Assembly (NCBI RefSeq): GCF_029626175.1
Contig: NZ_JARUBM010000002.1
Coordinates: 5,907,001 to 5,971,000, forward strand
Direction of reading: 5' to 3'
Length of the DNA: 64,000 bases
Source: Micromonospora sp. WMMD1082
GTDB taxonomy: Bacteria; Actinomycetota; Actinomycetes; Mycobacteriales; Micromonosporaceae
The notes beneath the pieces were generated by a model. That model made no database searches, was not told the DNA's origin, and was given only the letters and a program-made list of their open reading frames with translations. This document shows positions 781 to 13,312 of this stretch, in pieces. Both the position numbers and the translations under genes were made by a program. How positions within the stretch are numbered: the first letter of the stretch is position 1; each line of letters begins with the position of its first letter.

Positions 781-2592
781 ATGACGCGCATGACGCACCC
801 GGTCCCCGGTGCGGCCCGGCCCGCCGCGTGGTGGCTGCGGGTTGTGTTCGCGGTGATCGGCGTGTTCGCTTCGGTGCTCGGCTACATCGGCCTGGAACGC
901 CTGTCGGAGGTGCGGCCGGATGCCATCGCGGACCGCTACGACATCCTCTACTACGACCTGCAACTCTTCTTCCTCAGCGCCGAGCTCTTCGAGGAACCGG
1001 GCCCCTACCCGTGGCAGCTGCAGGTCGCCCGGTTCGTCGCACCGCTGTTCACCCTGCTCGCCGTGGCCGAGGCCGGCCGGCTGCTGCTGGCCGCCGAGAT
1101 CCGCCGGCTGCGCGCCCGCCGCGCCAGCGGCCACGCGGTCGTCTGCGGCGACTCGCAGTTCGCCCACATGCTCGCCGACCGCCTCTACGCCGACGGTGAA
1201 CGCGTGGTCGTGGTGCGCTCCGAGCCGTTCGGGCCGCTGGAGTACCGCCGGCGCCGCTATCTCGGCGTCGTCGGCGACGCCACCAGTGTGGAGGTGCTGC
1301 GCGGCGCCGGCCTGTCGCGGGCGCACACCGTCTACGCCTGCACCGACGACGCCGACCGTAACCACGCGATCGCCAACACCGCCAACCGGCTGATCCAGGA
1401 CCGGCGGCACCCACCCCGGGTGTACGTGCAGGTCCACGATCCCGAGATGTGCCTGTCGTTGCAGGCCCGGCGGCTCGGCGCCGCCGGCTCCAGCCGCCTG
1501 CGGCTGGACTACTTCCACGTCGACGACATCGCCGCCCGCGCACTGCACCGGCACCACCCGCTGCCGTCCGCCCTCAGCCGGCCGACGAAGGTCCTCATCG
1601 CCGGCGAGGGCAGTTTCCGCCGCGCCCTGCTGGTGGAGAGCGCCCGGCACTGGCGCGCACACCGGACCGAGGGCGGCCGGAGCGCCCGGCCGCTACAGGT
1701 GGACCTCGTGGCGCCGGACGCCCGCCGCGAACTCACCCTTGCCGTCTCCCGCTACCCGTTCCTGGCCGACGTCTGCCGGTTGTCCGCGTACGACCGGGAC
1801 ATCGACGGGCTGCTCGGGCTGGACCAGTTCGTCGCCGAGGGCTACGACCGCATCTACATCTGCGCACCGGACGAGATCAGCGGCCTGCAGTTCGCGCTGG
1901 ACACGTCCGCGCTCTGGCGGGGGGCGCAGGGCGCGGTCTTCGTACCGGTCTACCGGCAGGCCGCGCTCGCCGCCGCCTTCCACGGCGACGCCCGCCACGA
2001 CCTGCTCGACGAGGTGCACGGCAAGCTGCGGCTCTATCCGGTGCTGACCCACGCCTGCGATGCCCGACTGATCGCCGAGGACCTTACCGAGCGACTGGCC
2101 CAGCAGATCCACGCCCGGTACCTGCACGCCCAGCATCGGGCCGGGGTGCGCCTCGGCGACGCCCCCGCAATGGTGCCCTGGTCCCGGCTGCCCGAGTCCC
2201 TGCGGCGGGCCAACCGCAGCCATGTCCAGGACATCGCGGCCAAGCTGTTGAACCTGGGTTGCGTCGTGGCACCCCGGCACGGCAGCGCCGGCGACGCCTC
2301 GGCCGCCGGCCGGGCCATCGACGACCGGGTCGAGCAGCTGGCCCGGCTCGAACACGAACGGTGGTGCCGGGAGCGGCGCGGCGACGGTTGGACGTACGGA
2401 CAGCTGCGGGACGAGGCCCGGCGACGGCACCCCGCACTGCGGCCCTGGGACGAGCTGCCCCCCGCCGTCCAGGAGCAGAACCGCGAGGAGATCCGGGCCC
2501 TGCCCGACGTGCTGTCCGACAGCGGGTTCGAGCTGATCCGGCTGAGTCCCGCGGTGCCCGCTCAGTGGGGAGGGCCGGCCGATGGCGCCTGA
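781..2592 (+). CDS. Membrane TrkA-N / RyR domain protein
   Basis: 603 residues. Two N-terminal hydrophobic segments (about 17-40, WWLRVVFAVIGVFASVLGY; and 82-103, VARFVAPLFTLLAVAEAG) flank a short outer loop, as in a minimal ion-channel-like module. They are followed by a TrkA-N/RCK Rossmann fold (HAVVCGDSQFAHMLADRL at about 118-135) and a second Rossmann-like unit (KVLIAGEGSFRRALLVE at about 270). The C-terminus (about 515-590) carries a RyR domain: LARLEHERWCRERRGDGWTY, then RRHPALRPWDELP and a Gln-Asn-Arg-Glu run. In prokaryotes RyR domains occur with TrkA-N, SLOG and effector domains in predicted nucleotide-dependent conflict systems, where they are thought to bind NAD/ADP-ribose-like ligands. 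It overlaps the next gene by 11 nt. The start could be ATG 781 or ATG 790. Domain calls are firm; a sensor/channel role is inferred. Confidence 0.85.
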   Translation: MTRMTHPVPGAARPAAWWLRVVFAVIGVFASVLGYIGLERLSEVRPDAIADRYDILYYDLQLFFLSAELFEEPGPYPWQLQVARFVAPLFTLLAVAEAGRLLLAAEIRRLRARRASGHAVVCGDSQFAHMLADRLYADGERVVVVRSEPFGPLEYRRRRYLGVVGDATSVEVLRGAGLSRAHTVYACTDDADRNHAIANTANRLIQDRRHPPRVYVQVHDPEMCLSLQARRLGAAGSSRLRLDYFHVDDIAARALHRHHPLPSALSRPTKVLIAGEGSFRRALLVESARHWRAHRTEGGRSARPLQVDLVAPDARRELTLAVSRYPFLADVCRLSAYDRDIDGLLGLDQFVAEGYDRIYICAPDEISGLQFALDTSALWRGAQGAVFVPVYRQAALAAAFHGDARHDLLDEVHGKLRLYPVLTHACDARLIAEDLTERLAQQIHARYLHAQHRAGVRLGDAPAMVPWSRLPESLRRANRSHVQDIAAKLLNLGCVVAPRHGSAGDASAAGRAIDDRVEQLARLEHERWCRERRGDGWTYGQLRDEARRRHPALRPWDELPPAVQEQNREEIRALPDVLSDSGFELIRLSPAVPAQWGGPADGA

Positions 2593-3094
2593 TCGCGTAC
2601 CGGTCCGCCTCGGGGTCACCGGCCACATCAACCTGACCCCGGCCACCGAGCGGCTCGTCGCCGACGCGCTCCGCGTCGAGCTGCGCCGGATCAGCGACCG
2701 GCCGGTGCACGGCGTCACCTGCCTGGCGGCCGGCACCGACCAGATCTTCGCCCGCGCGGTCCTGGACAGCGGCGGCACGTACGAGGTGATCCTGCCCGCC
2801 CGGGACTACCGGGACACGATCGGCCCCGCGGGCCGGGCCGCCTTCGACGAGCTGCTGCGCCGGGCGACCCGCGTCATCCACACCGGCTACCGCACCTCCG
2901 GCACCGCCGCCTACGCCGCCGCCAACCGGGAGCTGGTGCTGCGCGTACAGCGGCTGGTGGCGGTCTGGGACGGTGAACCGGGCTGTCACGCCGCGTCGAC
3001 CGACCGGACCGTCCGGTGGGCGCGCCAGCGGGGCATCCCGACCACGGTCCTCTGGCCCCCCGACGCCCGCCGCGCGGCGCCGCACCAGGTCTGA
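2582..3094 (+). CDS. SLOG-fold (LOG/DprA-like) protein
   Basis: 170 residues, starting at an ATG that overlaps the RyR gene by 11 nt, so the pair is co-translated. Visible SLOG features are the N-terminal strand and loop LGVTGHINLTPATERLV, a mid segment with VTCLAAGTDQIFARAVL, the ILPARDYRD motif, and the C-terminal YAAANRELVLRVQRLVAVWDG, which forms the final strand of the Rossmannoid sheet. SLOG proteins include lysine-decarboxylase-like LOG enzymes and DprA. In conflict systems they are predicted to make or sense nucleotide-derived signals. Coupling to a TrkA-N/RyR protein suggests a ligand generator/receptor pair. Substrate and activity are unknown. Confidence 0.85.
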   Translation: MAPDRVPVRLGVTGHINLTPATERLVADALRVELRRISDRPVHGVTCLAAGTDQIFARAVLDSGGTYEVILPARDYRDTIGPAGRAAFDELLRRATRVIHTGYRTSGTAAYAAANRELVLRVQRLVAVWDGEPGCHAASTDRTVRWARQRGIPTTVLWPPDARRAAPHQV

Positions 3095-3150
3095 CGGCGC
3101 CGGGCCCGCGACGGCGGCGCGCTGCGCTGTGATCGGCGGCGCGCGGTCAG

Positions 3151-5757
<2,607 letters not shown>

Positions 5758-5790
5758 CCCGGGTGTCCACCGGGCCCGGACGCCCCCGCG

Positions 5791-6216
5791 TCAGTCACCG
5801 TCGACCTTCTCCGGCACGGCCACGGTGCCCTGCCGGGGCACCGACACCGACTTGATCACCTCGGCCAGGGTCTTCTCCGACACGTCCCGCACGTCGATCT
5901 CGGTGCCGTCCGGGAGGGTCATCCGCAGCCGCTTGCCCCGGTTGCGCTCCTGGTAGCGCTTGATCACCTCGGCCAGGTGGCGGATGTCCGCCGCCGCCCG
6001 CTTGGCCGTCGGCACGGTGAAGACGGCGAGGGCGAGGAGGCCGAAGAGGTAGCTGGCCGTGTCCCGCGTGCCCGGCGCGGCCTCGGTGGCCAGTTCCGTC
6101 GCCTCGACGCCGGAAAGCTCGTTCAGGTGGTCCTTGAGATGGCGTGCCTGCTCGGCCAGTTCCTCGTCGGTGATCGGCCCGTCGGAAACCACCTGCAGGA
6201 TCAATCCATCAGCCAT
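5791..6216 (-). CDS. EACC1-like effector-associated protein
   Basis: 141 residues. It has a polar N-terminal helical part, a Pro-Gly-x-x-Asp turn (APGTRDTASYLFG), a hydrophobic stretch (LFGLLALAVFTVP, about 57-69), an amphipathic helix, a basic RNRGKRLRMTL strand, and a closing DGTEIDVRDVSEKTLAEVI. This order matches my recollection of the effector-associated constant component 1 (EACC1) family, small proteins encoded next to effectors (caspases, trypsins and others) in actinobacterial NTP-dependent conflict systems. It is the upstream gene of a two-gene unit with the caspase-GH13 gene (33 nt gap). Its biochemical role is unknown. Family assignment is from layout, not from a search. Confidence 0.7.
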   Translation of the reverse strand: MADGLILQVVSDGPITDEELAEQARHLKDHLNELSGVEATELATEAAPGTRDTASYLFGLLALAVFTVPTAKRAAADIRHLAEVIKRYQERNRGKRLRMTLPDGTEIDVRDVSEKTLAEVIKSVSVPRQGTVAVPEKVDGD

Positions 6217-6315
6217 GATCCCATCGTGGTCGGTGTCACTACAGCGTGCAAGGGCCTGGACGGCTGGATGTAGGCGCGATCCACGGCGGTGAACCGCGCG
6301 ACGGGTGGCGACCGC

Positions 6316-6942
6316 TCAGACGCCCCGGGCGAACAGCGCCAGGCGCACCCGGTTGGGGCTGCCCGTCTTCGTCATCAGGCTGGTGATGTGGGTCTTCACC
6401 GTGGTGACGCCGATGTGCAGCCGCTCGGCGATCTCGCCGTTGGAGAGCCCCTCGGCGACCAGGTTCAGCACCTGCTGCTCGCGGGCGGTCAGCCCGTCGA
6501 CCGGCGGGGGTGTCTCGGTGCGGGCGTGCACCGCGCGGTGCACCAGGCGACCCAGCACCTCCTGGCTGAACGGGCTGTCGCCGGCCGCGGCCCGCCGCAC
6601 GCCGTCCAGCAGATCGGCCGGCGGTGCGTCCTTGAGCAGGAAACCACAGGCGCCGGCGGTCAACGCCGGATAGAGATGGTCGTCGTCGCCGAACGTGGTC
6701 AGCACCAGGACCCGGATGCCGGGCCGGTCGGCGAGGATCCGGCTGGTCGCGGAGATCCCGTCGACGCCCGGCATGCGCAGGTCCATCACGACGACGTCGG
6801 GGACGAGCCGGGCGGCGAGGGAGATCGCGTCGCGACCGTTGTCGGCCTCGCCGACGACCTCGATGTCGGGCTGTGCCTCGCAGAGCATGCGCAGGCCCGC
6901 GCGGATGAGATGCTGGTCGTCGACCAGCAGGACACGGATCAT
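6316..6942 (-). CDS. NarL/FixJ-type response regulator
   Basis: 208 residues: receiver domain (about 1-120; IRVLLVDDQHLIRAGLRML with the acidic pocket, phospho-acceptor Asp in DVVVMDLRMPG, conserved Thr in LVLTTFGDD and Lys in GFLLKDAPP) and a LuxR-type HTH (about 143-205; LTAREQQVLNLVAEGLSNGE, then VKTHITSLMTK). Its ATG overlaps the TGA of the upstream histidine kinase gene by 4 nt, so they form a two-component pair with the kinase first. Genes of this class in actinomycetes control varied envelope, antibiotic and stress responses. The target is not evident, though the ABA4-like and membrane-protein genes lie just upstream on the same strand. Confidence 0.93.
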   Translation of the reverse strand: MIRVLLVDDQHLIRAGLRMLCEAQPDIEVVGEADNGRDAISLAARLVPDVVVMDLRMPGVDGISATSRILADRPGIRVLVLTTFGDDDHLYPALTAGACGFLLKDAPPADLLDGVRRAAAGDSPFSQEVLGRLVHRAVHARTETPPPVDGLTAREQQVLNLVAEGLSNGEIAERLHIGVTTVKTHITSLMTKTGSPNRVRLALFARGV

Positions 6943-8192
6943 GCCGGCTCCGCCGCGCGCGGCCCGACGGCGGCCTCGTCGTCCGGCGATGGCGGGGACG
7001 GTGTGCCGCGGGGCGACGGGGGCGACCCGGAGGTCGGGGCGGGCAGCACGGTGGCGACCCGCCAACCCGCGCCGGTCGGCCCGGCCGTCAACTGCCCACC
7101 GAGCACCTCGACCCGTTCGCGCATTCCGGTGAGGCCATGGCCGCCACCGGCCGGCACCGTGACCGGCACCCAGCCGTGCCCGTCGTCGACCACCTCCCAG
7201 CGGACGGCCCCGTCGACCACGCCGACCGACAGGCGCGCCACGGCGGACGTCCCCGCGTGCTTGGCCACGTTGGTCAGCGACTCCTGGGTGAGGCGCAACA
7301 CCGCCAGGCCCCGCACCGCGTCGAGCGAACCGACCGCCGGGTCGATGTCGGCCTCCACGGTGACACCGGCCTGGCGGGCCCGGTCGATCGCCGCGCCGAG
7401 GGCGGCCGGCAGGGCGGCCGGCTCGATGGCGGTCAGCGCCGCGTCGCCGCGTACGCCGTCGGGGTCGCGCAACACCGCCACCAGCCGGCGCAGGTCGGCC
7501 AGCGCCGCGGCGCCGGTGCCGTGCACGTCGTCGAAGACCGCCCCCACCCGGGGATCCAGGTCGGTCAGTACGTGCCGGGCCACGCCGACCCGCAGCACCA
7601 TCGACGCCACGTGATGCGCGACCACGTCGTGCAGCTCCCGGGCGATGGCGCTGCGTTCGTCGGCGCGGGCGGCGCGGCTCTCCGACTCGCGCCGGCGCTG
7701 CTCCTCCGCCACCCGCTGCCGCGCCTGCTGACCGAGTTCCCGGGTGGTCCGGATGACCAGCCCGAGCAGCAGCGGAATGCCGACCTCCAGCAGCAACCCG
7801 AACACACCGGAGAGGAAGAGCGGCAGCGGGTCGCCGATCGAGTCGGTGAGGTCGACCGCGGCCAGCAGCCCGGCGGCGAGCCAGATGGTCCGGCTCCGGC
7901 GGGCCCGCATGGTCAGCTCGAACAGCGCCCAACTGGCCCCCACCTGGTTGACCAGGAAGTCGTCGACGAGGCAGATCGCGACCGCCAGCAGCGCGGCCTG
8001 CGCCACCAGGTTGACCAGCGGCCGGCGGTGGAACCCGAGGCCGACGGCGAACGCGAGCGCCGCGAGGATCGCCTGCGCGGTCGTCGGCGCGCCCACGGCA
8101 CCGAAGGCCAGATATCCCAGGCCGGACAGGACGAGCAACACCATCCGCGCGAGGGACTCGCGCGCGTCGAACAGTCGCCTCAGCCGGCCCAC
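6939..8192 (-). CDS. NarL/DesK-family sensor histidine kinase
   Basis: 417 residues. Five or so hydrophobic segments fill residues 15-155 (for example VLLVLSGLGYLAFGAVGA and LFLSGVFGLLLEVGIPLLLG). A coiled region (ARQRVAEEQRRRESESRAA) leads into the HisKA_3 dimerisation helix with phospho-acceptor His in IARELHDVVAHHV. The ATPase domain shows the N box (LTQESLTNVAKHAG) and G box (VVDDGHGW, GGGHGLTGMRERVE). The C-terminal tail is Pro/Ser-rich. It is partner of the LuxR-type regulator, overlapping it by 4 nt. The membrane sensor has no recognisable extracellular domain, suggesting it reads a membrane-related signal (inference). Confidence 0.92.
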   Translation of the reverse strand: MGRLRRLFDARESLARMVLLVLSGLGYLAFGAVGAPTTAQAILAALAFAVGLGFHRRPLVNLVAQAALLAVAICLVDDFLVNQVGASWALFELTMRARRSRTIWLAAGLLAAVDLTDSIGDPLPLFLSGVFGLLLEVGIPLLLGLVIRTTRELGQQARQRVAEEQRRRESESRAARADERSAIARELHDVVAHHVASMVLRVGVARHVLTDLDPRVGAVFDDVHGTGAAALADLRRLVAVLRDPDGVRGDAALTAIEPAALPAALGAAIDRARQAGVTVEADIDPAVGSLDAVRGLAVLRLTQESLTNVAKHAGTSAVARLSVGVVDGAVRWEVVDDGHGWVPVTVPAGGGHGLTGMRERVEVLGGQLTAGPTGAGWRVATVLPAPTSGSPPSPRGTPSPPSPDDEAAVGPRAAEPA

Positions 8193-8197
8193 GACGG

Positions 8198-8653
8198 TCA
8201 GCCTAGGCGGTGCGGGTCGGGGTCACGAGTGGCCGGCGACGGCGCCCATCGGGGACGGACGGCCAGGTAGGCGGCCAGGCCGAGCGGCCCCAGCAGGATC
8301 GTCAGCACCAGCACCGGCGCCATCACCAGTGCCGGGATCTCCCGTTCCCGGCTGTCCAGCCACGCCCACCGGCCGACGAACAGGTCGAACGCGATCATGT
8401 GGGCCCAGGCCGCCGCCGCGCCGTCGGCGCCGCTCAGCAGCTCCCGCACGCCGTCGAGGGTCGGGGAGGCCACGACCGGCAGCAGCTCCCCGAGCGCCGG
8501 GAGCACCAGGATCGCGTAGATCGCGACGACCGGCGCCACGATCAGCGGCGACCGGATGATCCGTGCCGTCACCGCCCAGTTGGGCAGCAGGATCATCAGC
8601 GCCCAGAAGGGCGCGGCCACCGCGAACGTCAGCGTGAACAACGTACCGCTCAC
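8198..8653 (-). CDS. ABA4-like (DUF4281) membrane protein
   Basis: 151 residues with four hydrophobic segments. It begins VSGTLFTLTFAVAAPFWALM and includes the family-typical GAAAAWAHMIAFDLFVGRWAW and LTILLGPLGLAAYL. Members of this family resemble the plant ABA4 (neoxanthin synthesis) protein, but bacterial versions have no proven function. The GTG start overlaps the stop of the upstream membrane gene (GTGA), so the two are coupled. It ends 5 nt upstream of the histidine kinase start, so all four - strand genes may be one transcript. Confidence 0.75.
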   Translation of the reverse strand: MSGTLFTLTFAVAAPFWALMILLPNWAVTARIIRSPLIVAPVVAIYAILVLPALGELLPVVASPTLDGVRELLSGADGAAAAWAHMIAFDLFVGRWAWLDSREREIPALVMAPVLVLTILLGPLGLAAYLAVRPRWAPSPATRDPDPHRLG

Positions 8654-9678
8654 TGGTGCACCTCCTCGCGTCCGTCGCCCGCAGTCGCCACCGTCATCGC
8701 CATGGCCGGTGCCGGCGGTGTGGCCGTGGCCGGCGCGGTCACGGTGACCGGTGCCGTCGTCGTGGCCGCTGGGGCCCGGCGGCCCGCCAGCACCCCCGCG
8801 ACGGCGGCTGCGGTGGCCGCCACCAGCGCCGCCGCGACGGCCAGGGTGAGCGCGTCCGGCCGCAGCAGCGGCTGCCCGCGCAGGGCCTGCCAGGTGAACA
8901 GGATCGTCGACGCGCCGTACGCGAGGCCCGCGACGAGCAGCAGCCGCGCCCGGGTGCGCTCGTCCAGCCGGCCCCCGGAGAACCGACCCAGCAGGAGCGC
9001 CAGGATGGGCAGCGCCTGCAACCCGTGCAGCCCGACGAAGTGCCCGATCCGCAGGTCCCCGCCGATGGTGCTCCAGCCGACCAGCGGCAGCCCCGGCCCG
9101 CCGTCCGGTACGCCGACGCTGTGTGCGCCGGCGATGCCCTCGACGGCGGGCGCCTGGCCGGGCATGGTCATCGGTATCGCCACCAGCATGCCGAGCAGCG
9201 CCAGGCCGAGCCCCAGGCGCACCGCGTACCGGGCGGCCCGGTCCGCGATCGGCTGGCGCAGCACCGCGACGCCGATGACGACGTGCGCGGCGAACAGCAC
9301 CATGATTGCCGTACCCATCAGCAGCCACAGTACGGCGTTCAGCTCGCTGGTCTCGTTGTAGTGACTGGTGGTGCCGCGCAGCACCTGCCCGACGATGACG
9401 GCCATCTCCACCACCCCCATGGCGACCACGACGGTGGCCGCCCACTCCGCGATCCGGCTGCGGCGGCGCAGCAGCGAGAGCATCCAGGCCAGGGTGATGC
9501 CGTACAGCACGAAGGACACCGAGAACTTGAACGGCTTGAGCCAGATCGGCACACCGGTCAGGACCCGCTGATCGGCGACGATGCCGACCGCGCAGACGAC
9601 GGCGAGCACCGCCATCGCCGAGACGAAGACCATCAGCGGGCGGTGCCAACGCGCCCGCCCGGAAAGGTTGGTAGTCAT
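8650..9678 (-). CDS. Polytopic membrane protein of unknown function
   Basis: 342 residues, about eight hydrophobic segments (for example PLMVFVSAMAVLAVVCAVGI, VSFVLYGITLAWMLSLL, LALLGMLVAIPMTMPG, LALAVAAALVAATAAAVAGV) and an Ala/Thr/Pro-rich tail (TTTAPVTVTAPATATPPAP). The soluble loop with VGWSTIGGDLRIGHFVGLHG and the LQALPIL segment is characteristic of an uncharacterised actinobacterial family I cannot name. It is the first gene of a coupled unit with the ABA4-like gene. It is divergent from the CBS-BON gene, and the 197-bp gap between them holds an 18-bp inverted repeat. Confidence 0.75.
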   Translation of the reverse strand: MTTNLSGRARWHRPLMVFVSAMAVLAVVCAVGIVADQRVLTGVPIWLKPFKFSVSFVLYGITLAWMLSLLRRRSRIAEWAATVVVAMGVVEMAVIVGQVLRGTTSHYNETSELNAVLWLLMGTAIMVLFAAHVVIGVAVLRQPIADRAARYAVRLGLGLALLGMLVAIPMTMPGQAPAVEGIAGAHSVGVPDGGPGLPLVGWSTIGGDLRIGHFVGLHGLQALPILALLLGRFSGGRLDERTRARLLLVAGLAYGASTILFTWQALRGQPLLRPDALTLAVAAALVAATAAAVAGVLAGRRAPAATTTAPVTVTAPATATPPAPAMAMTVATAGDGREEVHQ

Positions 9679-9778
9679 GCTTCCGATGCTGGTGCGGGCA
9701 GGCGCGGACGTCGCCCGACCGCGGGCCACGGTTGCGGCCGGTTGTCGGGCCGTCCGCGGCCGGTGGTCGGGTCGTCCC

Positions 9779-9796
9779 CTCCTACCCCGGTAGGAG
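9779..9796. promoter_or_regulatory. 18-bp inverted repeat in a divergent promoter region
   Basis: CTCCTACCCCGGTAGGAG has two 8-bp arms (CTCCTACC and GGTAGGAG) around CC. It lies 101 bp upstream of the membrane protein start and 80 bp upstream of the CBS-BON start. Its position and symmetry fit an operator for a dimeric regulator, perhaps the neighbouring LuxR-type protein. No binding protein can be assigned from sequence. Confidence 0.45.
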
Positions 9797-9875
9797 AGGT
9801 CCAACGCCCCTGCCGGCGACATATGCGGTGGTGGCAGGCTGGAAGTGGGTAAGTGACGGGGGTAAGGAGGAGGCG

Positions 9876-10610
9876 ATGACCACCAACACCCTGAAGAAGA
9901 GACAGTGGACGGTCGAAGATGTGATGACGCGCGACGTCGTGTCGGTGGCGGCCGACACGTCGTACCGCGAGGTTGTCGACGCGTTGGTGAACAGCGGCGT
10001 GAGCGCGGCGCCGGTGGTCGACGCGGAGGGCCGGGTCCTCGGCGTCGTATCCGAGGCGGACCTGTTGCACAAGGTCGAGGCCGCGGGGGAGGAGCGGGAG
10101 CGCCGGCTCGTGAGCGGCCTGCGCCGCCTGGCGGCGAAGGCGCGGGCCACCGTCGCCGCCGACCTGATGACCGCGCCGGCGATCGTGGTCGAACCCACCG
10201 CGTCCGTCGTCGCGGCGGCCCGGCGGCTGGAGGCGGAGCAGATCAAGCGGATGCCGGTCGTGGACGCCGAACGGCGGCTCGTCGGTGTGGTGTCCCGCCG
10301 GGACCTGCTGCGGATCCACACGCGGGCGGATGCGGAGATCCGCGCCGACATCGTCGAGAACGTGCTGCGCGGCCTGTGGGTCGACCCGAGCGCCGTCGAG
10401 GTCGGTGTGGTGGACGGCGTCGTGACGCTGTCCGGCACCGTCGAGAGTCGTAGTCTCGCCGGCATCGTCGCCGACCACGCGGCAAAGCTCGCGGGCGTCG
10501 TCGACGTGGTCGACCGGTTGACCTGGGAGCGGGACGACACGGAGCTGATCGGCTCGCGCGGCTTCGCGTTCGGCACCGCCGAGCGCCTCATGCGACCCTC
10601 GCGCGACTAG
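9876..10610 (+). CDS. CBS-CBS-BON domain protein
   Basis: 244 residues. The start is ATG 9876, preceded by a strong ribosome site (AAGGAGGAGG). Two CBS motifs (about 11-62, VEDVMTRDVVSVAADTSYRE to VVSEADLL; about 93-145, ADLMTAPAIVVEPTASV to VVSRRDLL) form a Bateman module likely to bind an adenine nucleotide. A BON domain follows (about 152-218, DAEIRADIVENVL then VDGVVTLSGTVES), usually a phospholipid- or protein-binding fold. No signal peptide is present, so it is cytoplasmic. Such CBS-BON proteins are common in actinobacteria, often near stress or hypoxia genes. The ligand and partner are unknown. Confidence 0.9.
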   Translation: MTTNTLKKRQWTVEDVMTRDVVSVAADTSYREVVDALVNSGVSAAPVVDAEGRVLGVVSEADLLHKVEAAGEERERRLVSGLRRLAAKARATVAADLMTAPAIVVEPTASVVAAARRLEAEQIKRMPVVDAERRLVGVVSRRDLLRIHTRADAEIRADIVENVLRGLWVDPSAVEVGVVDGVVTLSGTVESRSLAGIVADHAAKLAGVVDVVDRLTWERDDTELIGSRGFAFGTAERLMRPSRD

Positions 10611-12177: not shown

Positions 12178-12816
12178 TCAGCGCACCGAGGCGTACGCCA
12201 GGGGTGCGCTGACCCCGCCCCACGTGCCGGTCAACGTGCCGCCCAACGCGGCGGCGCCCGAGGCGGGCACGATGCCGGGGCGGCGGATCACGCCCAGCTC
12301 GACGGTGTCGGTGACGATGACCGTCGGGTCGCCGTCGACGACCCGGCGTACCGCCCCGACGTCGGGCAGCCCGGCGCCACCGGGGGCATCGTTGGCGATC
12401 TCCATGCTCGGCAGGCGCACCTCGCGCCGGCCGTCGACCTCGAAGTATTCCTCCGCCTGCCCGGCGCCGGCGAGGACCGCACCGGCCAGCGCGGCAGCGT
12501 ACACCGGGTCGACGGGCGCGTCGTAGACCCAGCGTGTGCCCAGCACCGAGTGCTCCACGGTGCCCACCAGCCAGCCGTCGGTGCTGCCCAGCGGCGCATC
12601 ACGGTAGGTCAGCGGCACCTGGTGCACCGGCCCGTCGCCGGCGCGGACCAGCAGCGTCTCGATCCCGACCTCGCCGGCCGGGTCGTCGAACCGGTACGCG
12701 GCCACGCGCACCACCTCGGCGCCGGAATCCCCCTCGTACCAGTCGCGGGTCGGCAGCCAGGTCGCCAGCAGTTCGAGTTTGGTGGGGTGCAGCTCGGCCC
12801 GATGCAGTAATGCCAT
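12178..12816 (-). CDS. Maltokinase N-terminal cap-like domain protein (function unknown)
   Basis: 212 residues. The opening ALLHRAELHPTKLELLATWL and TRDWYEGDS match the CG0192-like/maltokinase N-cap family, in which a small beta-rich domain similar to the N-terminus of mycobacterial maltokinase stands alone. The Val/Gly-rich middle (RWVYDAPVDPVYAAALAGA) and the C-terminal GGTLTGTWGGVSAPLAY are also typical. No catalytic motif is visible. Either of two ATGs (12816 or 12825) could start it; 12816 was chosen. It lies alone between the CoaD-like gene (convergent) and a TM2-like membrane gene. Confidence 0.65.
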   Translation of the reverse strand: MALLHRAELHPTKLELLATWLPTRDWYEGDSGAEVVRVAAYRFDDPAGEVGIETLLVRAGDGPVHQVPLTYRDAPLGSTDGWLVGTVEHSVLGTRWVYDAPVDPVYAAALAGAVLAGAGQAEEYFEVDGRREVRLPSMEIANDAPGGAGLPDVGAVRRVVDGDPTVIVTDTVELGVIRRPGIVPASGAAALGGTLTGTWGGVSAPLAYASVR

Positions 12817-12925
12817 GCGCCGCATCGTACGCACCGCCCCCGACGTGCGTGGCCGCTGCCGACGACGACGGCAGCGTCCGGCGCGCGGGCTCGGGGGCCG
12901 ATCGCGCGGGGGAGCCTGCGCGGGC

Positions 12926-13312
12926 TCAGGCGCCGATGGCGCGCAGGTTGTGCTGGTCGACGGCGCGCGCCGCCAGTACGGCACCGCCGGCGAGGTAGGC
13001 GAGCCAGGTCAGCGGCATGGTCACCAGGCCGACGGCGAGGAAGATCAGCGCGAAGTTGATCCAGAACAGCACCCAGAACGAGACCATGAGGACGATGCCG
13101 GTGACGACGCGGCCGGCGTAGATGCTGCCCACGCCGAAGATGCCGAAGATGCCGAGGATCAGCTCCAGGGCGATCGCGGCGCCGGTCGACTTGGGCGCGG
13201 CGACGACGACCGCCGGCGGCCAGTGCACCGGCGGCGCCGCGGCGTACGGTGCGGGCAGCTGCGGGGTGCCCGGCAGGCCCTGCCGCTGGTGGTACGGGTC
13301 CTGGTAGCTCAC
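12926..13312 (-). CDS. Small TM2-like membrane protein
   Basis: 128 residues, GTG start. A Pro/Gln-rich N-terminus (YQDPYHQRQGLPGTPQLPAP) precedes two or three hydrophobic segments (IALELILGIFGIFGVGSIYAG; GIVLMVSFWVLFWINFALIF; TMPLTWLAYLAGGAVLAARA). The GIFGVGSIYAGRVVTGIVLM hairpin has the Gly/Tyr-rich turn of TM2-domain proteins. The function of this type is not known. It is separated by about 160 nt from the divergent VOC gene. Confidence 0.7.
   Translation of the reverse strand: MSYQDPYHQRQGLPGTPQLPAPYAAAPPVHWPPAVVVAAPKSTGAAIALELILGIFGIFGVGSIYAGRVVTGIVLMVSFWVLFWINFALIFLAVGLVTMPLTWLAYLAGGAVLAARAVDQHNLRAIGA

What the first reader, a model, noticed from the sequence alone, without database searches (positions are those of the whole stretch)
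781..6216. Candidate nucleotide-triggered conflict system: TrkA-N/RyR + SLOG facing EACC1 + caspase-pseudoGH13
Four adjacent genes carry parts that in published genome surveys mark NTP/nucleotide-signal-dependent conflict or cell-suicide systems: RyR and TrkA-N (ligand sensing), SLOG (ligand generation or sensing), EACC1-like and a caspase effector. They form two tail-to-tail coupled pairs 57 bp apart. This combination, with a fused glycosidase-like module, is to my knowledge not described as a system. Predicted model: SLOG makes or binds a nucleotide signal, RyR/TrkA-N membrane protein senses it, caspase kills or remodels.
Basis: partly seen in the sequence, partly recalled or inferred. Interest (0 to 1): 0.92.

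Follow-up and report, generated by a model that had tools for sequence, protein, structure and literature searches.

The report
Bacterial caspase fused to dead enzyme
Four neighbouring genes in a soil bacterium that were read as one suicide or defence system look like two separate pairs that became neighbours once; the interesting part is a caspase-like protease joined to a sugar enzyme that has lost its catalytic residues but is still conserved.

Summary
The genes are there, but as two independent modules. RyR/TrkA-N plus a SLOG-like gene is one unit (directly paired in at least 71 of 89 places in the family). EACC1 plus caspase-GH13 is the other, a member of the published EACC1-caspase 'System 4' (Kaur et al. 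2020). The units touch in 7 of 13 caspase-GH13 loci, one clade on the tree, which fits one insertion of the EACC1-caspase cassette. The proposed four-gene nucleotide-to-caspase pathway is therefore not supported. New here: the caspase's C-terminal module is a trehalose-synthase (TreS) domain without nucleophile (D to L/V), acid/base (E to W) and NHD histidine (to G) in 13 of 13 copies; 17 of 17 stand-alone relatives fetched keep them. Within the genus the dead domain is about as constrained as the caspase (mean dN/dS 0.135 and 0.112). The window's RyR domain keeps the His/Trp/His ligand pattern but has Asn at a catalytic Asp position, suggesting a sensor. Best reading: a membrane-tethered, protease-gated decoy or scaffold beside an unrelated nucleotide-sensor pair.

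The parts
781..2592 (+). RyR/TrkA-N protein, 603 aa: two hydrophobic segments (about residues 21-39 and 85-103), TrkA-N at 120-227, RyR at 513-584 with H525, W528, H550 and N567
2582..3094 (+). SLOG-like protein, 170 aa, overlaps the preceding gene by 11 bp; SLOG fold not confirmed
3151..5757 (-). Caspase fused to pseudo-trehalose synthase, 868 aa
5038..5757 (-). Caspase part (residues 1-240): H80 and C130 kept; EF-hand-like loop D187-E198
4783..5037 (-). Faster-evolving linker (residues 241-325), candidate region for self-cleavage (inferred)
   Evidence: mean dN/dS 0.281; alignment
3172..4782 (-). Pseudo-TreS (GH13) part, residues 326-862: L520 for the nucleophile Asp, W562 for the acid/base Glu, G629 for the NHD His
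5791..6216 (-). EACC1 protein, 141 aa, one hydrophobic segment at about residues 53-71, 5' partner of the caspase
6316..8192 (-). Response regulator and histidine kinase that mark the other side of the inferred insertion; not part of either module

Best explanation
Two independent two-gene modules that became neighbours once in one clade of Micromonospora and kin. Module 1 (EACC1 + caspase-pseudoTreS) is a variant of the EACC1-caspase System 4: a small membrane protein keeps a caspase-like protease off; when it is triggered the caspase becomes active, possibly with Ca2+ in its EF-hand-like loop, and cuts itself or a target. The C-terminal module is a TreS barrel that is maintained but has lost its catalytic residues; it most likely acts as a binding decoy or oligomerising scaffold, not as an enzyme. 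Module 2 (RyR/TrkA-N + SLOG-like) is a membrane protein whose TrkA-N and RyR domains bind NAD- or ADP-ribose-type nucleotides; the window's RyR pocket looks like a binder rather than a hydrolase. Shown: gene content, recurrent pairing, independence of the pairs, conserved loss of the catalytic residues, constraint on the dead domain within the genus. Inferred: membrane topology, triggering, cleavage, decoy or scaffold role, nucleotide ligand.
For: EACC1 directly 5' of the caspase in 11 of 12 fetched non-window loci; RyR + SLOG-like in all 6 of those 12 that have RyR there; SLOG-like beside RyR in 20 of 20 RyR loci that I chose away from the caspase. SLOG-like directly 3' in 71 of 89 RyR places, 28 of 29 in the genus. 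Adjacency to caspase-GH13 in 7 of 13 loci, one change on the tree. Insertion point seen by comparison with L082. Catalytic residues lost in 13 of 13 fused, kept in 17 of 17 stand-alone relatives with a fetched locus and in the genome's second TreS-like protein L002; caspase His/Cys kept in 12 of 12 with that region. Mean dN/dS 0.112 caspase, 0.281 linker, 0.135 pseudo-TreS over 45 pairs of ten genus sequences. Closest solved structures are TreS: 5h2t 2.3e-166, 3zo9 1.1e-160, the latter putting L520 at D230 and W562 at E272 (counted by hand). H525/W528/H550 match the spacing of RyDEP H75/W78/H100, with N567 at D117. Kaur et al. [quoted passage not shown]
Against: No experiment. Decoy/scaffold is not separated from a sensor role. 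Across genera the constraint looks weaker: dN/dS against G212 is 0.290 caspase, 0.530 linker, 0.375 GH13, against G031 0.615, 1.092, 0.643 (NG86 is crude at this divergence and GC content). 18 of 89 RyR places had no SLOG-like gene directly 3' in the rows entered, and 16 of 16 loci from other families had none. Two of 15 family rows (L095, L096) lack H525 and H550, so the RyR pocket is not kept throughout. RyDEP itself was not fetched; its residues were mapped by spacing. The hydropathy scan that marks the EACC1 segment (1.59) also marks a stretch inside the GH13 barrel (1.53), so the membrane call is weak. Structure prediction failed and was then off. In the seven-genome clade the four genes stayed together, so a secondary link there is not excluded. 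The SLOG assignment is not confirmed.
Confidence: 0.5

Rival explanations
1. One four-gene system: the SLOG-like protein makes or binds a nucleotide signal, RyR/TrkA-N senses it and the caspase executes.
For: All four are adjacent in 7 genomes, the pairs 56 bp apart in the window, and have stayed together within that clade.
Against: 6 of 13 caspase-GH13 loci lack an adjacent RyR; RyR + SLOG-like occurs in many genomes without the caspase; adjacency is one change on the tree.
Confidence: 0.1
2. The pseudo-TreS is a sensor: it still binds a sugar or glucan and gates the caspase by ligand.
For: Fold conserved; His of motif I, Arg of motif II and the third Asp kept (motif names recalled); constraint within the genus.
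Against: Besides the catalytic residues, other positions invariant in the 17 stand-alone relatives are changed in the fused copies, e.g. Y to R at 384 and Y to E at 390 in the window protein.
Confidence: 0.2
3. The pseudo-TreS is a decoy for maltokinase Pep2, the known partner of mycobacterial TreS.
For: TreS forms tetramers that bind Pep2 (PMC6509496, passages); two of three contact residues named there, Arg-312 and Pro-503, are kept in the window protein (counted by hand).
Against: The third, Arg-534, is Gln in the window protein. The only Mak_N_cap match in the genome is a CG0192-related protein, not a recognisable Pep2.
Confidence: 0.05
4. The GH13 part is decaying baggage of a fusion, without function.
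For: Catalytic residues are lost in 13 of 13; the G141 copy is itself broken; dN/dS is higher against the two copies from other genera.
Against: dN/dS 0.135 within the genus and no internal stop in 12 of 12 copies examined.
Confidence: 0.03

Closest known systems
EACC1-caspase two-gene 'System 4' (Kaur et al. 2020, PMC7159879; section 33, part 1 of section 35 and passages read)
   Same: 5' EACC1 gene, 3' gene with N-terminal caspase and a variable C-terminal module; actinobacterial; NF047832 met
   Different: C-terminal module is a trehalose synthase without catalytic residues; the words GH13, amylase and trehalose do not occur in the main text. The paper speaks of up to 50 C-terminal domains; its source data were not seen
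Trehalose synthase TreS (GH13; PDB 5h2t, 3zo9)
   Same: The whole domain aligns end to end
   Different: Nucleophile, acid/base and NHD His lost; fused to a caspase
RyR (R12) domain proteins, incl. phage RyDEP (PMC13232231; outline and parts 1-2 of 6 of the text read)
   Same: Ligand His/Trp/His pattern and spacing in the window protein
   Different: Asn at the catalytic Asp position; fused to TrkA-N and a membrane-like region; paired with a SLOG-like gene
Thoeris (TIR signal maker plus effector; starts of abstracts in the listing)
   Same: Possible use of NAD-derived nucleotides
   Different: No TIR match in the window proteins scanned; the genome's one TIR_2 match is about 4.45 Mb away along the contig

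Membership tests
EACC1-caspase System 4 | 5' gene for an EACC1 protein | tested here: met
   8 of 10 family members match PF19953 at E<=0.1, best 1e-5; the window's own is below the cut-off; directly 5' in 11 of 12 fetched non-window loci
EACC1-caspase System 4 | single TM helix in EACC1 | tested here: inconclusive
   one hydrophobic segment at 1.59, but the same scan marks a stretch inside the GH13 barrel at 1.53
EACC1-caspase System 4 | 3' gene with N-terminal caspase of the EACC1 type, catalytic dyad intact | tested here: met
   NF047832 142.4 bits, cut-off 140; His/Cys kept in 12 of 12
EACC1-caspase System 4 | variable C-terminal module | tested here: met
   pseudo-TreS here; of the genome's four other NF047832 matches (three over cut-off), one has WD40, one nSTAND1-WD40, one DUF4429, one no further Pfam match at E<=0.001
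EACC1-caspase System 4 | anti-invader function | not testable with these tools
   predicted in the paper sections read
Trehalose synthase (GH13) | catalytic Asp, Glu and NHD motif | tested here: not met
   L or V, W, and NGD in 13 of 13; treS_nterm 607 bits, cut-off 678
RyR domain (PF02026) | profile match and ligand residues | tested here: met
   66.3 bits, cut-off 27.4; H525, W528, H550 in the window protein; H525 and H550 are missing in 2 of 15 family rows
RyDEP-type glycosidase | His-Asp catalytic dyad | tested here: not met
   N567; Asp in 0 of 15 family rows, 12 of 16 rows from other families of the class; mapped by spacing, RyDEP not aligned
SLOG superfamily | profile match or significant profile-profile similarity | tested here: inconclusive
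Known defence systems in PADLOC | models of the library | tested here: not met
   only a GlgB-labelled model and a generic caspase model matched, both to the caspase-GH13 protein
Thoeris | TIR gene with effector at one locus | tested here: not met

The most novel reading that the evidence does not exclude
A bacterial guard: a caspase whose pseudo-trehalose-synthase half mimics a metabolic enzyme, so that an invader molecule or a disturbed glucan/trehalose state that engages the mimic switches on the protease; in one clade a nucleotide-sensing RyR-SLOG membrane pair has been brought beside it as a second input.
Probability: 0.15. Interest if true: 0.8.

Novelty: new variant of a known kind. Interest (0 to 1): 0.45.

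Why it matters
It is a concrete, testable case of the printed prediction that bacterial caspase and related systems borrow inactive copies of cellular enzymes. The inactive copy recurs in 13 of 300 genomes of the family, its active relatives have solved structures, and the lost residues are defined, so decoy, scaffold and sensor roles can be told apart at the bench. The RyR part links a cellular membrane protein family to the kind of pocket that phages use against ADP-ribose signals.

Tried and rejected
One four-gene system: rejected on neighbourhood and tree. Pep2 decoy: no recognisable Pep2 in the genome. Functionless remnant: disfavoured by dN/dS within the genus; the higher ratios against G212 and G031 were left out of the means because they are other genera, and are given under evidence against. 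Sugar sensor: kept as a rival because some pocket residues are kept and others lost. RyR + SLOG-like beside signal NTPases: seen in several places, but no background rate was computed, so it is not used as evidence. LOG proteins as SLOG reference: no signal. The consensus scan found no promoter-like site, and none of its three terminator-like sites lies between the two pairs. NCBIfam gave nothing useful for the SLOG-like family.

Literature: ten searches, listings seen. No held paper has at least two of 'RyR domain', 'TrkA-N', 'SLOG'. None of the 5 papers holds 'trehalose synthase', so none pairs it with 'caspase domain', 'EACC1', 'pseudoenzyme' or 'conflict system'. Burroughs et al. 2015, recalled as a source for SLOG/RyR systems, is not held and was not seen; so novelty of the RyR-SLOG pair is not claimed.

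Rows dropped or merged: three short RyR fragments (G027, G109, G136) were left out, two split matches (G121, G208) were joined as coordinates only, and only part of the SLOG rows was entered (that list was itself cut), so 71 of 89 is a lower bound. G141 was left out because its copy is broken. The 17 stand-alone relatives are those for which one search gave a locus, the best-scoring GH13-only matches.

Full report
Observation. The window lies in a 7.44 Mb genome. Named relatives that share the caspase-GH13 gene at 75-95% over the searched segment are nine: Micromonospora phaseoli, lutea, andamanensis and craterilacus, two unnamed Micromonospora, Verrucosispora sediminis, a Micromonosporaceae bacterium and Actinoplanes subtropicus. 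The four ORFs are at the stated places. RyR and TrkA_N are well above cut-off, caspase and GH13 are clear, EACC1 is weak in the window but supported by its relatives. The SLOG label stays inconclusive.

Two modules, not one. A search of 300 genomes of the family found 13 places with the caspase-GH13 protein (one, G141, without the caspase's N-terminal part) among 122 genomes with any match at E<=1e-140; the rest are GH13 only. RyR/TrkA-N was found in 87 of 300 genomes at E<=1e-30. In 7 of 13 caspase-GH13 loci RyR is 519-584 bp away; in 2 it is far away (43 kb, 2.4 Mb) and in 4 no RyR was found. EACC1 is directly 5' in 11 of 12 fetched loci besides the window; G141 is the exception. The SLOG-like gene is directly 3' of RyR on the same strand in at least 71 of 89 places, 28 of 29 in the genus. 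On a tree of 21 RyR proteins the seven beside the caspase need one change (support 80/99). In G280 (L082) the order is FxSxx-type TPR family, F10, AAA family, RyR, SLOG-like, response regulator, histidine kinase; in G217 (L068) the same AAA, F10 and TPR families lie on the RyR side, while EACC1-caspase and a BNR-type gene sit between SLOG-like and the kinase (domain scans were run on one member of each family). The simplest reading is one insertion of an EACC1-caspase cassette. G171 and G175 carry the cassette beside the same two-component genes without RyR, so later loss of RyR-SLOG there is also possible.

Outside the family. In 394 genomes of the class, which include only two others of the genus among those listed, the caspase-GH13 protein was found in the window's own genome alone at E<=1e-175, while RyR/TrkA-N was found in 39. 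No SLOG-like gene was detected in 16 of 16 class loci fetched; a diverged copy could be missed.

The dead enzyme. The fused GH13 has L (12 of 13) or V (G031) for the nucleophile Asp, W for the acid/base Glu in 13 of 13, and NGD for NHD in 13 of 13; 17 of 17 stand-alone relatives with a fetched locus keep all three, as does L002, the genome's second TreS-like protein. L002 is itself below the treS_nterm cut-off (581 bits, against 607 for the fused protein), so its activity is not assured either. Alignment to PDB 3zo9 puts L520 at D230 and W562 at E272 (counted by hand; the catalytic roles are recalled). Of 387 columns invariant in the 17 relatives 157 are kept in all fused copies. Mean dN/dS over 45 pairs of ten genus sequences is 0.112 for the caspase, 0.281 for the linker and 0.135 for GH13; against the other-genus copies G212 and G031 it is higher in all parts (GH13 0.375 and 0.643). 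So the domain looks catalytically dead, yet maintained within the genus.

The caspase. H80 and C130 are kept in 12 of 12 copies with that region, and a loop D187-x-D189-x-N191-G-x-I-x-x-x-E198 of EF-hand type is kept in the 12 (Ca2+ binding is inference).

The RyR domain. A May 2026 preprint (PMC13232231; outline and parts 1-2 of 6 of the text read) reports that phage RyR-domain proteins bind or cleave 2'/3'cADPR, with H75 and D117 catalytic and W78 and H100 in binding. In the window protein H525, W528 and H550 have the same spacing and N567 stands at the Asp position. Asp is absent in 15 of 15 family rows and present in 12 of 16 rows from other families of the class. Two of the 15 family rows lack H525 and H550, so the pocket is not kept in every member. 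A binder is the best guess for the window protein; it rests on spacing, since RyDEP itself was not aligned.

Compared with what is known. EACC1-caspase is System 4 of Kaur et al. 2020: a two-gene system with up to 50 C-terminal modules, proposed to deploy its effector by self-proteolysis. The same paper names inactive versions of cellular enzymes among the effectors of several of its systems and suggests decoys. GH13, amylase and trehalose are absent from its main text; its source data were not seen.

Mechanism. Most likely EACC1 holds the caspase at the membrane; a trigger frees the caspase, which cuts in the faster-evolving linker or elsewhere; the pseudo-TreS, whose mycobacterial relatives are tetramers (PMC6509496, passages), serves as scaffold or decoy. 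None of these steps is shown. The RyR-SLOG pair is a separate, probably nucleotide-sensing, membrane module.

Noticed in passing
window 12178-12984 (-): A CG0192-related protein with the genome's only maltokinase N-cap (PF18085) match, about 6 kb from the EACC1 gene; no sign that it is a real Pep2.
   Followed up: partly
L078 (G141) 6223-10203: Broken copy of the caspase-pseudoTreS gene: N-terminal caspase part and EACC1 missing, frame change near the C-terminus.
   Followed up: partly
L085, L087, L090, L095, L096: RyR-SLOG pairs lie next to DUF4062-NACHT-HEAT genes (Pfam run on L087 and L090 members), in L095 and L096 with two genes between, one of the SCO2521 type in L095; no background rate computed.
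   Followed up: partly
L093, L094, L082, L083: RyR-SLOG pairs lie near ParA-(TIR)-STAND-TPR genes (scanned in L093 and L083); the L083 one matches the FxSxx-COOH system TPR protein.
   Followed up: partly
L081 (G150) 4252-7407: A BTAD-STAND-TPR regulator gene stands divergently beside the RyR-SLOG pair.
   Followed up: no
L195 2474-6688: A long protein whose N-terminus looks TIR-like by eye stands beside a RyR/TrkA-N gene without SLOG.
   Followed up: no
window 5164-5199 (-), residues 187-198 of the caspase: EF-hand-like loop inside the caspase domain, kept in 12 of 12 copies aligned.
   Followed up: partly
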